Of a DNA stretch of 64,000 nt, positions 51,216 through 59,378 are shown one piece after another; the first letter of the stretch is position 1; each line of letters starts with the position of its first letter. This DNA is from Amanita rubescens (taxonomy: Eukaryota > Basidiomycota > Agaricomycetes > Agaricales > Amanitaceae): contig WION01000033.1 in NCBI GenBank assembly GCA_015039365.1, forward strand, positions 186,001-250,000. The letters are read 5' to 3'. The position numbers and the translations under genes are program-made. Under the pieces are notes generated by a model that saw nothing but the letters and a program-made list of their open reading frames with translations, searched no databases and had not been told where the DNA came from.

Positions 51216-54200
51216 CGAAAACACCAGAGGATCTTCTCAAAAGTGTCCCCTTCCATCTTGTTTTTCGGGCTGAAGACGGCGCAACTGTCAAGACGAGTAC
51301 CATCCCATCTGAGAAATTAGCCAAGAAGGACGCCACCCCGCTCCGGGACCTGAGGACGAATGGGAACTTGTGGGTTCTTTCTACTTTGCGCCTTGACCCC
51401 ACCTTACCATACACTTCCTTCCTGTGTATAGGTCGTCGAGATACCGCTTTTGTTTTCCAGGTGATAGCAACACGATATCGGAAGACATCACACTAGGATC
51501 ATACATCTTATCGACCAAAAAAGTGCGCTTGTTCTGCATTTGACATGGAATGACGAAGCTTACTGTAATCATACTGGGTCGCAGAACGTTACCGCACTCC
51601 AAAATGCAGGAACAGAAAAGACGGTTGCGATACTCACGCTGTCCTGCAGATCAAACGCGGCGTTCAGACTTGGCCAGCAGACTTTGTCAACGTGAGGGTC
51701 ACATATGTCGTCCACCACATCACCACCCAACTGATGACCACTGAAAGGGATTCCACAGACATGTCCGAGCATGACTGGAATGTCGTTATGTTGAACAATT
51801 CCTTACTCCACGGAATGGTCTATGATCCCGAGAGTAAGACCCTGCAACCAGCCAGAGAACCTGGTAAGTCTAACTTGAAGCTTGGGTGCCTGAGTAGGCC
51901 AGATCTCTAAGGAAAGCCAGGCTGACCATTGTTCGATAATAGCATTTAAACTCAAAGGGTTCCATCCCGACCGATATGCCTCACCAGGAGGTACTACTCC
52001 TAGTTGCCTGGACAGCCAGGTAAGACCTCTACCATGCGGTCCGATTTTTGCTGCAGAGGGTTGGCTAACTTTCACCAGCATAATTTCTTAGCCCCCGCTT
52101 TTGAGGTAGTCGATGATTCCTCAGTTACGTTTACCTCAGTGAGGAATTCGCTCCAAATGTCAATGATAAAGAACGGCTTTTCTTCTTGGAGCGTAGAAGC
52201 ATCTCTGTGGGTGACACTACCCTTTAATTTCTACGTTTCCATTGTGACAAGGCTTTTGCAGTTCTGGAGGCTACAGTGGATTTTCTGGTGGTGTGAATGC
52301 CAGCGGCGGCCAATCATCCCAGGATCTCCAGACTGCAGCCAAGGAACAAACGATGGACGTTGTCCATTCATCGTACAATGTGCGTTTACTATGCGTGGTC
52401 TGGATGTATATTATGATTTTGACACCCAGTTTTAATAGTTCCCACGCGTGAAGGTCTTTCTCGATGGCGATGACCTCGAAGTGTCGGACGTTTGCAAAGA
52501 GTTCATCCGCACGGAGGGCCAAGGATACGATGGCGTCCAGAAGTTTTACAATAAATTTGGTGAGCTCTGTGTCTCCTGTTTTCATGAAGCGCTTAGGTTT
52601 ATGTGTGAACAGGCACCATTTTTAGCTGTTCTGTTGTACTCGGAGCCCGCTTGCATAGCACCGTTGAATCGAGCTCATGCATAGAGGTCACGGGACAGAC
52701 AACGAAAGAACAAAAGACAGCTGCGGTTTCTGCCTCGTTCTCATCTCCGTTTGCTTCTGGATCGGCCGGAGCTTCAAAATCTCGGTGTATGAACTGGGAG
52801 GCGCGAGGCGGGACGACATTCTTGGCGATTGAGTGAGTATGAAGTCAAGGGTGTCTAACCGAATACTGAAGCATATTGCCGATAGACCGACTGCGTGGAT
52901 CAACACAGTTGGCACGTACCAGAATTGGAGAGTGATAGAGGTAAGTCAGACTCCTACCCAGTCCCTCGGAGCTAGCTTGACGATGTTATGTAAGCGTATT
53001 GCTCTGGAGGGACTGGCAAATAACATGCGTCAACAACGTCGCGGTAGCGTTACTTTCTGTGACATCTTTTCGGACTTTGAATAACTTGAGCGCGCGTTGG
53101 CCGTGCCGTATCACCCAGTTGCATGGCACGCCTGTCCCCTGGCCACAATTGCTCGGCTTGACAAAAGGTGAGTGGTATATCAATTCTTGTACCATATCTA
53201 ACCCTCTGACTCAAAATTTCAGCCAATCTCGGCGATTTCTCTATGTCTAGTCAAACAGATATGGTTGTTGATCCGTATTGCCCATCGTTCGATGAAATCC
53301 GGGCCAAAACACTTGAGAATCTCGGAAGACGGCCATGTCTATGGCAGGTTCGCGTCTGTGATGCGATTTTACGTGGCCAAGACGTCATCTCGCTTGCGGC
53401 TACTGGCAGTGGGAAGACCTTAACCTTCTGGATGCCGCTCTTATTCCGGCCACAAGGAATCCAGATCATTGTCACACCCTTAAACATTCTTGGGGAACAA
53501 AATACGGAGCTTTTGAGCAGGTTGGACATAGAAGGAATCTTCATATCGGCTAAAACTGCGACAGAATGGAATTTTCGGGTGAGCCTTTGACATTCTTTGC
53601 ATATTCAACATATTTGCTCACAACTTGAGTAGCTCATTGCTTCATTTCGATATCGAGTCATCATCGTCAATCCGGAGGAGCTGATGCGGCCTAAAGGCGG
53701 CTTTGAGAAGCTCCTCAGCGATAAGACTTTCAATGACCACGTCATCAGTATCGTCATTGACGAAGCCCACTGTATCTCACAGTGGGGAACTTTTCGACCT
53801 GAATACCGTGAAATCGGACGTCTTCGTTATTTGCAGCGTAAACCCTGCCCAACTCTAGCGACATCGGCAACAATGTCATCAGGTGTAATCGACGACGTCA
53901 AGAAAGTCTTGCACCTTCGTGAAGAAGCTTTATTCATTTCCCGTTGCTCTACCGATCGCACCAACATCAAGATACTCGTCCGCCCAATTCTCAATCCCAT
54001 TCGCACGTTCCGGGACCTTTCGTTCTTATTATGCAACTGGAAGCTTGGTGATCCACCACCGCCGAAGTTTCTGGTCTTTTTCGACAACATCAACGAGTCT
54101 GTTTTAGCCGGCCTATTCTTGCGAAGCTTATTGCCTAAAGATCAACACCACCGTGTCAAGTGGTTCAATTCAGAGATGTCAGATAAGTTCAAGCGGAATG

Positions 54201-57200
54201 AAGCAGGACGGTTGGCTCGGGGTGAAACGTGGGGTCTGATGGCAACCGATTCATTCGGGATGGTGAGTTCACGTTAGCGCAAATTTACAATGTACTAAGG
54301 GATGCTCAGGGTATGGATCTACCTGACATCGCAATTGTTATCCAATGGCGTGCCACTCCATCTATATCAGCTCTTTGGCAACGATTTGGACGTTGCGTTC
54401 GTGATCCGACCCTTGAGGGTACCGCAATTTTTTTTGCCGAAAAGGAGTATTTCGACGTTCTCGCAAACGAAAAAAAGAAACGAAAGCGCAATTCTTCTTC
54501 TATCAAAATCGAACCAGGTACATCATCGACTGCCAAACAAACTAAACTGGGGCCTTCTACGAGTCGGTCAGCGGCATCCCGGGACCACGAGGCTTCCGAC
54601 GAAGAGGGAGAGGAGGAAGGGGAGGAGGAGGAGGAGGCGGAGGAGGAGGAGAAGGATGACTCTGATGATGCCGAGGATGAGAAGGACGACGAGAAGGGGA
54701 AGGGGAAGAAAAAGAAGCCCTCAACGTACTCGAGAAAGAAATCCAAAAAAGAGAAGATTGAACCTGCTGTTTTCACCTTGCTTAATGCCGATACCCGGGG
54801 GGTCAGTTGTCGCCGCCAGCCATTCAGCGATCAGTTTGAAAATACAAAAGCTGGTGAGTTTCACATTTGTGACTGTATGACGTTTTGTCTGATATATTCA
54901 AGTATCCCTCCACCTTGAATGTGACCCGAGTATGCTCAACGGTTGTGACCGCTGCCGTCCGGCTGTCATTGAGACGTGCTGTGATATACACAACCCGGAG
55001 CTTGCTAGTCTGTACAAGGCCACTGTCATCAAGACTCCCCGTCAAGTTGGCCGTTCGCGCTTGCCACTAAAGAAGGAAATGAGCGCTGAGGACAAAGAGC
55101 ATCAGCAGGAGAAGGATCAGGCGCTTCGCATGGACTTGGAGAAGTGGCGGCGCGACATGACGGCGAAGAAGTACAGTCGTGGGCACCTTCGCAATCTCGG
55201 CGCTGGCCTGGTGATGGGTACAACAACTCGTGATCGCATCGTCGAGTGTGCAAGATATGGCAAGATCAGGACCATTGCTAACCTTGACCGCGAAACCAAG
55301 TGGACGGGCGCAAACGAGTTTGGCAACGATATACTCAGGATGATAGAAACACATTATCCCATCGACCCACCTCCTATCATTTCCATCGAGCAGATTACCG
55401 AGGCGTCATCAAATGCCGGCTATTCACATGAATTACCATTTACACAGAATGTCGGGCACAGTGACTCAGCGTTACGAGCAAAACGTCAAGTGAAGTGTAG
55501 CGTGTGTCATCTGGAGGGCCATACGAGTTCGTTCACTGATTGTCCACTCTGACACTCTGTGATTAACACGTACTAGTGCGAAGCAAGAAGTGCAAAGCGA
55601 ATCAAAACAAGGAAAATATCCCGGTGAATGAGCCACCGCTTCTACCATCAGCGCTACCGCAGCCATCGTCTGTTGCGCAGCTTCCACCCATCTTTGCATC
55701 GTCGCTTTCAGGAACGACATTATCTGCTTCAACAATTGCTTCAATTTCATCGCACTTATCCATTTCGCTTTCTCAACCACAGACAAAAAGGCAAAGGAAA
55801 AAGAAAAACTAGAACAGCTCTATAACGACATCATCAAACTCCGGCTTTTCCATCTCGTCACTTATGTCTATACTTTCCACTGTCCGTCCAGTCCGTACCT
55901 GCATCAGTTCGTGTCCTCTACTTAGCAAATCGTCAATAACATGTGTTGTTTTCCGCCCTGGAGTGAAAACGTGAAGCAAAGATTCTTCATATTGCAGCAA
56001 CAGCTCGGAGAATGTCTTGTCTAGGTTTGCGTCGCAATGTGCCGTAGTTTCATTCACCAGAAGAAAGTTGCGTTGCATGATTTGCTGCACTGACTTGTAG
56101 TTTCCGACCAGCGGTGACTCGGTAATGATGCGTTTGATTGTGCGGTTAGGTCCCTCACCACCGTGATCGACCTAGTATAATGCGTGAGTCCTTCAAGTTT
56201 CAACCACCAATGCAAAGAAATCTGACTTTGATTCGCATATTATGGAGTTCCACATACCAATCAACAGCGCGGAATTTTCCTGGCTTCCCTGTCACGTTGA
56301 TGAGCCAGTTGTACCTGATTGCATGCCGTGTCCGCTCGGAGAGCTCAAAGTGGACTGTAGTTAGGAATCGGGTGAGGTGAGTTGCATATTTGTGTTTTCC
56401 GGTGGCCTTGAATAGAGCAATCCATGGTAACAGGCATCTCTCCACACGTGCAATATCTCCGTGGTTCATTGCCCATGAAAGCTCTTCGTATAATGCGAGA
56501 TACTTCAAGACAAGTGTAGCATTCTCGAATAGCTGATCCCGTTCACTTGTAGGATTTAATCGGCTCAAAGGCAAGTCCTCGTTACTTGTGAATTCAAGCG
56601 CTAACGTATTTGCCATTTTCTTCAGGTCCTCAACTGTAGGCTGTGACGCAGCAAAACATTCAAGGGTTGTATGATCTGGATTCAGTCTCCGTGCAAGAAT
56701 CCGCCAGCAATCGAGACGTCGGCAAATTCCAACGTGAGTGATGCTTTGATGCATTCTTCGGAAACCTGGCTTCGTTGTCATGACATGAGTTTCTCTAGGA
56801 CGTAAAACATTGATCTCGTTCATCATGCAAGATGCATCTTTGCGTGCTGTATCGGGTTTGACAAGGACACGGTGAAGCGTATCCGTGCAAGCCATTTTGC
56901 AGTGGAAGAGCCCTGGACAAAAGAGAACACACTGTTTCCGATGATATGGTTCGTCTTCAATTGACCGGCGTTGGTGAATCGATTGAATACGCTCCCCTGT
57001 TCCTAGATCACCATGGAACGGAAGGATATATTCAGTAACGTCGAAGTCGGGGTCGTGTTCATCGTCAGAGATTTCGTCTGGATCCAGAATACCTGCTTGT
57101 TCTAGTAAGTTATCGATTGCCTGAATATTTCCGCTAGTCGTCGAGTTATTGACTTCCATTGTGTACGCAGGCAGGATTTTGGTTTTGACGAGTGGTATCG

Positions 57201-59378
57201 CTTCAAGCGCTTCGGGTTCACCAACATCGTTCAGGAACTTCTGGAAGTAAACTGGTCCATACGTGCAGAGATCTCGGAGGAAAAGCCATGCAGTAAAGCG
57301 GTCCCGTGCAGTCAACCCATCCTCGTCAAGTTCATCTGTCAGCAATGCTACCAAGTCCAAGTAAGTCTTCTTGTTCAGTAGAACATCGACGTTGCAAGGG
57401 TTGAACGAGGACTTCTCCCATAGTTCTTTCGAGCATTTCAAGTCCTCACGTTTTACACCATGCATGAGGGGAAAGAAAAGACCCGAGGTAAGATGCCGCA
57501 GGTTTTCCGTGGTTTTCTCAACAGTTGGGACAGATGTCTTCAAGAGGACATCTACATTGTCATAAGCAATAGCAAAAGACATCGTTCGGCCAAGGTCTTG
57601 CAACGCTCGTCTAGCATTTATCGAAAGAGACTTGATGGCATCATAGATAGCCGTCATCGAGATGCTGATCCCCATATGAGCAAGTGTTTCAATAACTTTC
57701 TCTGGTGCTCGGCAAGCGTGAAGGAATATGCCGAAGACACTTTGGAACGGGTTTGCCTTCTGACTGGTGCTCTGCATAAAAATACTGATGATAACTGTTT
57801 TCTTCTAGACAGCAATTCGATTGTATGTGAATCAAATAGCAAATGCCTCACGATTTTACGCAGAGCAAGCCGACGGTTTGATTTCTTCTCATTTTTTTGC
57901 TCTGGAGAGGTTGGAGGCGTCCTAACAGTTCCTTGAAGTGCAGCGTCATCATCATCATCAGTTTCACCATCACCAGGACTAGCCCTAGCAACATTGCCAT
58001 CAGAATTCGCCAGTTGTTTATTCTTTGCCGATAGCAAGATATCGAGCAGAGCCCAGAGCCGAGGAGCAGTATCAGCTACATCCGAAGCCAAGTCCTCAAG
58101 ATCAAAGTCATCAATATCCTCTGGTGTTGCTCGTTGGGCCGAGAAATTCCATCCAGCACTTGGCTTGACAAGGTCCTTGATTTCACGCACATAGACACGG
58201 TGCAGAGCCTCACAAGCAGCCTTCTCAGCATTCCTAGGCAATTTGGCATGTCTTAACAGACTCCTGAGGACGTCACCAGACTGCTGAAGTAGCTCAGCAG
58301 TGTATGCGCTGCTCTTGAAGCGCCGCTCGGTCAAGAGAGCAATGACGAGGTCCGGAATTGAGCAGCCAGATGCATCAAATGCATCCAATATAGCCGTAAA
58401 GTCCCTTTGAGGTAGTGGCTGTATGCCCTGTACTTGTGGCTGTTGTAACTCAGGCATTGTCGAGCAGAAGGATAGTGCATATATACATCTAGTATTTCGA
58501 CGTTCCCCCGACGCTGTACGACGTACATATTTTTAGAAATACATTTCAAGGTCCGCCGCGGCCGAAGCCAAACGTGACAACTGGTGACAACGCGGGACGT
58601 TGTTGACGCATGTTATTTGCCAGTCCCTCCAGAGCGACATGCTTACATAACGAGCGATGCTGGGACTGGGTAGGAGTCTGGAGGTAAGTTAGATCTTTAA
58701 TGTTTACTTGAGAAGAATAATTAATGGCGTGTACTAGCGTCACAGCGTGAGAAATATCCTCAATGTAGGGCCCAGACTCATGCTATTCGACGGCATGTCT
58801 GGGATATTGCCGTATATCGAGCCGAACAGGGTCTACCTAATTGGTAGTGATGGTCGGCTGCTGAAGTGCTCTTCCAGTGGTGTCATTAGCCTCATTGATC
58901 CTAACAATGCTCAGGACGGCAGTGCAACTCAGGTATGTGGCTGCCTCGTAGTTTTTTCAACACCTTGATAGACAGATTTAGTGGTTTATTGTCAAGTCCG
59001 ATCTCCGGGTAACTGTAACTGACTTGGACAATCAAAAAGAACTGCGCTATGACGCCGGGACTGGTGTTAGTGCAGGCGAACCATCCTTTTCATGGAAGGT
59101 CTGGCAGGCGTCACCGGGGTCTGACTCTTTCTTGTGATTATCCGTTCTTGCCACTGTTGTAATGACGCTGAATGCTGATCAATTATTTCTCTGGCAGCAT
59201 ATCTTGTTCCAACTCTGAGGAAAAGAATATAGCCCTTGAGGCGGACATTTCACCCTCTGATAAGGTAAGTCAGAACATTTGTTACCCTAAAATTGAGATC
59301 TGATGTTTTGTGCAGGTTTTAATGAAACCCCTCGATATACGTAGTGATAATCAAGTCTGGCGCCTTTTGCTAGTTTAG
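51188..59378 (+). CDS. MACPF-like gene, interrupted in an intron by a DNA transposon
   Basis: Approximate multi-exon model. Exons between 51188 and 52940 encode a polar N-terminal region and then a MACPF-type domain; the FGT-x-F signature forms across an intron near 52560-52609, followed by the Gly-rich and NWRVIE segments usual in fungal MACPF proteins. After the transposon (52947-58680), coding resumes near 58740 and continues in short exons to a stop at about 59378, giving a small beta-rich C-terminal domain. The MACPF superfamily includes perforin-like pore formers, but many fungal members are uncharacterised. The start at 51188 is the last ATG of the 5' minisatellite in the right frame. 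Some internal exon borders are unresolved and it may be damaged. Confidence 0.5.
52938..52946. repeat. Target-site duplication, left copy (9 bp)
   Basis: GAGGTAAGT directly precedes the left transposon end and is repeated exactly after the right end. It is also the exon end and 5' splice site (GAG|GTAAGT) of the host gene. Confidence 0.85.
52947..53040. repeat. Left terminal inverted repeat
   Basis: Begins CAGACTCCTACCCAGTCCC. The outer 19 bases match the right end perfectly; a variable spacer follows; the inner 40 bases (GCTCTGG to AACAACGTC) match perfectly again. CCAGTCCC (52958-52965) and GGGACTGG (53009-53016) are complementary, so the repeat can fold on itself. Confidence 0.9.
53243..55812 (+). 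CDS. RecQ-type DEAH helicase of the transposon
   Basis: Five exons, 53243-53578, 53633-54262, 54310-54853, 54903-55526 and 55577-55812, give about 789 residues in phase. Helicase motifs are all present: ATGSGKT (about 53-59), TPLNIL, DEAHCISQWGTFRPEYR (about 155; the RecQ signature), ATSATMS, ATDSFGMGMDLPDI (built across the intron at 54263-54309) and QRFGRCVRD (about 346). No RQC or HRDC domain is apparent. Instead there is an acidic Glu/Asp block (about 430-475), a CDRC..CC cluster and a CSVCHLEGH..C zinc-knuckle near the C-terminus, suggesting nucleic-acid contacts. The last intron, with a weak GTTCGT donor, completes the knuckle; otherwise the protein ends at 55552. Its stop overlaps the convergent DUF6589 gene by four bases. 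Confidence 0.88.
55809..58457 (-). CDS. DUF6589 protein of the transposon, candidate DDE-type transposase
   Basis: Three exons, 58457-57852, 57804-56227 and 56171-55809, close in phase to 848 residues. DUF6589 is a fungal domain of unknown function, abundant in basidiomycetes. Recognisable segments: ISIFMQSTSQKANPFQSVFG (about 207), AIAYDNVDVLL (D284/D287), TSGLFFPLMHG, MEVNNSTTSGNI, PFHGDLGTGERIQSI (D468), FRAVDWYVELHN (D717, E721), then VDHGGEGPNRTIKRI. The YDN / GD / D..E order is what an RNase H-like DDE transposase would show; this is my inference. The first 200 residues are helical and acidic and could recognise the ends. Starts at ATG 58457, 139 bp from the right inverted repeat. Confidence 0.85.
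58596..58680. repeat. Right terminal inverted repeat
   Basis: Reverse complement of the left end; starts CAGACTCCTACCCAGTCCC when read inward from 58680. It lacks about 9 bp of the left spacer. It contains the same self-complementary CCAGTCCC/GGGACTGG pair. Confidence 0.9.
58681..58689. repeat. Target-site duplication, right copy (9 bp)
   Basis: GAGGTAAGT, identical to 52938-52946, immediately after the right inverted repeat. Confidence 0.85.

What the first reader, a model, noticed from the sequence alone, without database searches (positions are those of the whole stretch)
52947..58680. Complete-looking transposon with only a RecQ-type helicase and a DUF6589 protein
Seen: inverted repeats of 94 and 85 bp with perfect outer 19-bp and inner 40-bp blocks, an exact 9-bp target duplication, and two intact multi-exon convergent genes filling the interior. 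Known: RecQ-type helicases are mobile or subtelomeric in several fungi, and DUF6589 is abundant but uncharacterised in basidiomycetes. Inferred: these are the two proteins of one autonomous cut-and-paste element class, with DUF6589 as transposase and the helicase as an accessory or replication factor. I do not recall this pairing being described as a transposon.
Basis: partly seen in the sequence, partly recalled or inferred. Interest (0 to 1): 0.93.

Follow-up and report, generated by a model that had tools for sequence, protein, structure and literature searches.

The report
Two-gene mushroom transposon with a helicase
This is a complete, recently mobile jumping gene in a mushroom genome that carries its own DNA-unwinding enzyme and a protein of so far unknown function that is very probably the enzyme doing the jumping; it most likely belongs to a little-studied group already called AcademH.

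The parts
52938..52946 (.). left target-site duplication GAGGTAAGT (lies on a likely host splice donor)
52947..53040 (+). left terminal inverted repeat (94 bp), helicase side
52958..52967 (+). pairing arm starting at position 12 of the left end (CCAGTCCCTC)
53007..53016 (+). inner pairing arm of the left end (GAGGGACTGG)
52986..52993 (+). subterminal motif TTATGTAA in the left end
53243..55812 (+). RecQ-like helicase gene, 789 aa; exons 53243-53578, 53633-54262, 54310-54853, 54903-55526, 55577-55812; Walker A GSGKT from residue 55, DEAH motif from residue 154, zinc-knuckle-like stretch from residue 702
55809..58457 (-). DUF6589 gene, 848 aa, inferred DDE transposase; exons 58457-57853, 57804-56228, 56171-55809
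57558..57560 (-). codon of D284, proposed first catalytic Asp
57006..57008 (-). codon of D468, proposed second catalytic Asp
56481..56483 (-). codon of E643, proposed catalytic Glu (E657 is the alternative)
58596..58680 (-). right terminal inverted repeat (85 bp), DUF6589 side
58662..58669 (-). pairing arm starting at position 12 of the right end
58620..58627 (-). inner pairing arm of the right end
58643..58650 (-). subterminal motif TTATGTAA in the right end
58681..58689 (.). right target-site duplication GAGGTAAGT

Best explanation
A full-length, apparently autonomous DNA transposon. Shown: ends, 9-bp duplication, precise insertion, many copies including internally deleted derivatives and ~820-bp short forms of a related subfamily, and two genes that stay and diverge together. 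Inferred from predicted fold and conserved residues: DUF6589 is an RNase H-fold DDE transposase of the Hermes / P / ISCth4 / RAG1 type, which binds the ends, cuts them and joins them to staggered target strands 9 bases apart; repair of the gaps makes the duplication. Inferred: the RecQ-like helicase works on the transposition intermediate, most likely opening the ends or remodelling the joined complex so that host repair can finish, and it is needed for sustained spread. By what it works like, and probably by descent, it is an AcademH element.
Against: No Academ transposase sequence was available, so membership rests on duplication length and helicase. 8 of 23 fetched DUF6589 loci show no complete pair of ends with a duplication: C3, C515, C236, C760, C385, C115, C331, C300. 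C331 has long open frames for both genes but no ends found. C4 has both tips but no duplication. 3 of 35 DUF6589 loci lack a helicase within 10 kb and 3 have it on the same strand; 12 of 44 helicase loci have no DUF6589 within 10 kb. Foldseek alone gave no E below 0.001 (best 4.4e-3, Hermes). For 5 of 17 elements no empty site was listed. The right end of the window element folds hardly better than shuffles (z -0.74). The helicase's role has no direct evidence. No expression or transposition data.
Confidence: 0.85

Rival explanations
1. Same element, but the helicase is a passenger or a general fitness factor (for example keeping element DNA replicable) and is not part of transposition.
For: 12 of 44 helicase loci have no DUF6589 within 10 kb; no direct link between helicase and the transposition reaction was shown.
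Against: 32 of 35 DUF6589 loci keep a helicase; low pN/pS in both genes; correlated divergence; helicases are reported as cargo of AcademH and KolobokH (passages).
Confidence: 0.15
2. A KolobokH element: fungal Kolobok transposons with a RecQ helicase.
For: RecQ-type helicase plus DDE-like transposase, fungal (passages of PMC9587614).
Against: Kolobok makes 4-bp TTAA duplications and has 5'-RR..YY-3' termini by that paper; here the 20 duplications listed are 9 bp of varied sequence and ends begin CAG or TAR.
Confidence: 0.03
3. A superfamily separate from Academ that converged on 9-bp duplications and a helicase.
For: Two separate genes, whereas I recall (unsure) a fused protein for Academ; no Academ reference sequence could be compared; DUF6589 appears in 0 papers of the library.
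Against: 9-bp duplication, helicase and Basidiomycota all match what is reported for AcademH (passages).
Confidence: 0.15
4. About the ends only: the arm pairing is not a hairpin but two inverted binding sites for the transposase, which change together because one protein reads both.
For: Predicts the same covariation as a hairpin; usual anatomy for DDE transposon ends (established knowledge).
Against: A second, nested stem also fits its own partner better than swapped ones (5.27 against 3.80, P 0.0002, 11 related ends); spacing varies from 20 to 74 nt.
Confidence: 0.6

Closest known systems
AcademH (Academ superfamily, helicase lineage; Kojima 2020)
   Same: 9-bp duplication (reported 9 or 10 bp), a DEAD/Helicase_C helicase, host in Basidiomycota (passages of PMC10045372 and PMC10799480).
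   Different: Here transposase and helicase are two convergent genes; whether that differs from AcademH, and whether its transposase carries DUF6589, could not be checked because the paper and Repbase are not held.
KolobokH
   Same: Fungal DDE-like transposon with RecQ helicase (passage of PMC9587614).
   Different: TTAA 4-bp duplication; [quoted passage not shown]
hAT (Hermes), P element, ISCth4 and RAG1/Transib transposases
   Same: Predicted RNase H-like core with a helical insertion before the last proposed catalytic Glu.
   Different: No sequence similarity found (one exon against PDB); G-x-F-H where the hAT/P/MuDR/Kolobok/Dada group has C/D-x-x-H (motif); hAT duplications usually 8 bp (passage of PMC12730594).
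Telomere-linked RecQ helicases of fungi
   Same: RecQ-like helicase core in many copies, also in a mushroom (passages of PMC7473861).
   Different: Those are reported as subtelomeric; these are paired with DUF6589, many within TIR elements. No tree of the two was made.

Membership tests
AcademH | 9- or 10-bp target duplication | tested here: met
   exact 9 bp in 17 of 19 distinct paired elements, and in C693, C46/C383 and C373; definition from a PMC10045372 passage
AcademH | encodes a helicase (DEAD / Helicase_C) | tested here: met
   PF00270 E 3.5e-21 and PF00271 E 1.1e-10; domains as named in a PMC10799480 passage
AcademH | transposase homologous to Academ transposases | not testable with these tools
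   no Academ reference sequence; AcademH paper not held
AcademH | transposase and helicase in one protein (recalled, not verified) | not testable with these tools
   here two genes; whether fusion is a defining feature could not be checked
KolobokH | TTAA 4-bp duplication | tested here: not met
   9-bp duplications of varied sequence; definition
hAT | duplication of 5 to 8 bp | tested here: not met
   9 bp; hAT lengths from a PMC12730594 passage
MULE / MuDR | MULE transposase domain (pfam10551) | tested here: not met
   Pfam scan to E 1 gave only PF20231 for the DUF6589 protein; domain named in a PMC8290104 passage
DDE/D RNase H-fold transposases (general) | RNase H-like core | tested here: met
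   two predicted models of branches about 25% identical; prediction only
DDE/D RNase H-fold transposases (general) | catalytic D, D, E in the active-site geometry | tested here: inconclusive
   residues conserved and placed on the expected strands and helix; no coordinates were available to superpose them
RecQ helicases | RecQ-type helicase core | tested here: met
   core motifs, PDB matches RECQL5, WRN and RecQ, TIGR00614 best but below its cut-off in 3 of 3 relatives
RecQ helicases | HRDC domain | tested here: inconclusive
   weak in the C373 relative (E 7.6e-4, below cut-off), none listed for the window protein to E 1

The most novel reading that the evidence does not exclude
The ends act as structured DNA: each end is an 11-nt tip plus a fold-back hairpin, kept by compensating changes over deep divergence, and the element's own RecQ-like helicase is there to extrude, hold or resolve those hairpins during transposition, so that end recognition or a single-stranded step depends on DNA structure, unlike textbook cut-and-paste transposons. 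The transposase would also read the same subterminal motif in its targets.
Probability: 0.2. Interest if true: 0.8.

Novelty: new member of a known kind. Interest (0 to 1): 0.5.

Why it matters
It suggests a function for DUF6589, a Pfam family 'of unknown function' found in many Agaricomycetes, and links it to a little-studied transposon group. Proteins annotated as DUF6589, and some RecQ-like helicases, in mushroom genomes may well be transposon genes. An intact, recently mobile copy with near-identical derivatives makes the question of why a DNA transposon carries a helicase directly testable.

Tried and rejected
Relatives in viral contigs: none in 2 scans; plasmids: none. Viral fold library: nothing under E 0.001. 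Sequence match of one DUF6589 exon to PDB: none. Literature: 'DUF6589' 0 papers; PF20231 only in an unrelated physics paper; RecQ/transposon combinations listed no paper whose title or abstract start describes this pairing; Academ searches found papers that cite AcademH but not the AcademH paper; bioRxiv is not held. KolobokH, hAT and MULE were rejected on duplication length, termini or domains. C236, C760 and C385 were not taken as same-strand elements: helicase and DUF6589 there sit beside ends of two different subfamilies, so they look like neighbours. Ends were not found at C331 and C300. Ends of C46/C383 and C373 come from a scan that itself required a duplication; C373 is backed independently by a 100% empty site.

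Full report
OBSERVATION. The outer 19-bp blocks are exact, 2 matches against a shuffle mean of 0.01; the inner block is in a 93% complementary 59-nt pair; GAGGTAAGT flanks both sides. Both genes can be spliced into intact proteins of 789 and 848 aa. They run towards each other and overlap by four bases. The splice sites are predicted, not seen in RNA.

SAME ENDS ELSEWHERE. The species is probably Amanita rubescens: contig lengths 415399 and 275227 of this genome equal those of contigs that carry named A. rubescens proteins. The table has 25 rows, 20 with exact 9-bp duplications. The other five are two pairings of one element (C4), one of C760, and two chance pairings inside C10; so 20 of 22 elements, or 17 of 19 when haplotype duplicates (C138/C580, C321/C605, C135/C189) count once. 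Further elements with exact 9-bp duplications are C693, C46/C383 and C373 (that scan required a duplication). The 20 duplications have no fixed sequence, with a mild excess of G at the first and C at the last base.

EMPTY SITES. Joined flanks of 17 elements were searched. Eight gave a full-length 100% match without the element: C41, C124, C25, C373, C13, C138, C135, and C693, which lies in a repeat. C46 matched 176 of 211 bases at 100% across the junction, also in a repeat. The window matched at 95%, C321 at 91%, C72 at 89%. Five (C5, C726, C67, C94, C651) gave none, but only 40 of 141 and 40 of 469 candidates were scored. For the window element the alignment shows a single GAGGTAAGT and an exact junction in two near-copies, C44 and C257:251998, with a 7-base gap and a few single differences nearby; one may be the other haplotype of the other. 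Copies C651 and C25 are internally deleted forms of the window element at 99.3-99.8% identity, and C25 has empty sites at 100%. So this subfamily moved recently.

THE PAIR. DUF6589 loci (35, fragments of a locus counted once) were set against helicase loci (44): 32 of 35 have a helicase within 10 kb and 29 of these are convergent. Haplotype duplicates are included. Missing: C3, C26, C168; same strand: C236, C760, C385. A second helicase query gave 47 matches, largely the same places. The pairing reaches copies with 24-26% DUF6589 identity (C46, C373, C115, C97, C300). In other species, of 81 DUF6589 rows taken from the 120 listed (meant to be the NCBI-sourced ones) 17 share a contig length with one of 119 listed helicase rows; five of the 16 contigs exceed 1 Mb, where sharing means little; under 300 kb it is 8 of 35. 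Both lists were cut at 120 rows. Two pairs have adjacent gene numbers. Distances of the two proteins correlate, r 0.95 for 9 own pairs and 0.81 for 16 pairs elsewhere; species history may add to the second value. dN/dS is 0.05-0.07 in the three of nine comparisons with a finite dS, itself near saturation.

WHAT DUF6589 IS. A model of an A. muscaria relative covering 98% of the window protein (mean pLDDT 83) and a separate model of the distant C373 branch (pLDDT 83, pTM 0.86) show the same strand order with a long helical insertion. Foldseek alone is weak (best E 4.4e-3, Hermes). YDN, GD and a YxEL glutamate are conserved between branches (14, 13 and 13 of 14), in the window D284, D468 and E643, with E657 (14 of 14) as alternative. 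The tools gave no coordinates, so the active site was not superposed. Pfam's DUF6589 model matches downstream of the first Asp.

THE HELICASE. Its core matches RECQL5, WRN and bacterial RecQ and recQ_fam in 3 of 3 relatives, below the cut-off. The C-terminus has a zinc-knuckle-like stretch (E 0.028, below cut-off); a relative has a weak HRDC match.

THE ENDS. Of 22 ends examined, 18 have an 11-nt tip and then, from position 12, an arm complementary to an inner arm 20-74 nt away. The two C693 ends pair from position 14 in the fold only; C46:33355 pairs from position 8; C13:170227 lacks the outer arm. Fourteen of 16 ends folded with the shuffle control have z of -2.84 or lower; the exceptions are the window's own right end (-0.74) and C693 (-0.21). 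In 15 of the 22 ends (C693, C13, C46:33355 and duplicate ends left out) arms match their own partner better on average than partners from other ends (12.6 against 7.5; none of 20000 permutations as good), though for C257B, C515 and C373R some swapped partner scored higher; the second stem alone, 11 ends, P 0.0002. Related ends are not independent, so these are guides. Two inverted binding sites would also covary, so a hairpin is possible but not shown.

TARGETS. TTACATAA, the reverse complement of the subterminal TTATGTAA, lies 18-47 bp outside the tip in 9 places (6 independent: C13/C501, C343/C520 and C578, which look like other copies' ends or remnants, and C25, C41, C651) and in none at 70-99 bp. 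The motif was noticed first and tested on the same genome, with one orientation and one tip sequence, so this is a lead.

PLACE AMONG KNOWN THINGS. AcademH is reported to make 9- or 10-bp duplications and to encode a helicase (PMC10045372, passages) and to occur in Basidiomycota (PMC10799480, passages). KolobokH carries RecQ but duplicates TTAA (PMC9587614, passages). I did not see the AcademH paper. On what could be tested, AcademH is the best filing; the transposase comparison is missing. The 2021 Marasmius oreades genome paper noticed widespread non-autonomous Academ elements (PMC8290104, passages), so such elements are known in mushrooms.

VERDICT. Real, well supported, most likely a new member of a known kind, with the added value that DUF6589 gets a probable function and that the ends show a fold-back design worth testing.

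Noticed in passing
window 52938-52946 / 58681-58689: The element landed on what looks like a host splice donor (GAG|GTAAGT), duplicating it; uninterrupted near-copies of the site are at C44:93.8 kb and about 7 kb downstream in the same contig (C257:252.0 kb).
   Followed up: partly
G000 C25, C41, C651, C13/C501, C343/C520, C578: TTACATAA, also the subterminal motif of the ends, lies 18-47 bp outside 9 tips and outside none at 70-99 bp: possible target preference or insertion beside other copies.
   Followed up: partly
G000:C578:187713-187759: Two facing tips lie with one 9-bp stretch between them, as if two copies shared one target duplication.
   Followed up: no
G000:C10:105108-105932 (L006): An 825-bp non-autonomous copy inserted into the tip of another copy; its duplication GGTAGGAGT is end sequence.
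   Followed up: partly
G000 C10, C13, C72, C105, C124, C175 and others: A set of short 812-828-bp elements; the two compared (C10, C72) are 99.8% alike, have the ends of the C5 subfamily (91-97% over about 100-127 bp) and no other similarity to it found.
   Followed up: partly
L037, L038, L042 (C236, C760, C385): Three similar segments hold a helicase and a DUF6589 gene on the same strand beside ends of two different subfamilies.
   Followed up: partly
L054 (C331:1049200-1055200): DUF6589 (725 aa frame) and a convergent helicase (454 aa frame) with no recognisable ends: old element or possible domestication.
   Followed up: partly
G000:C84:61318-61408: Two facing tips only 91 bp apart, perhaps a minimal or end-only copy.
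   Followed up: no
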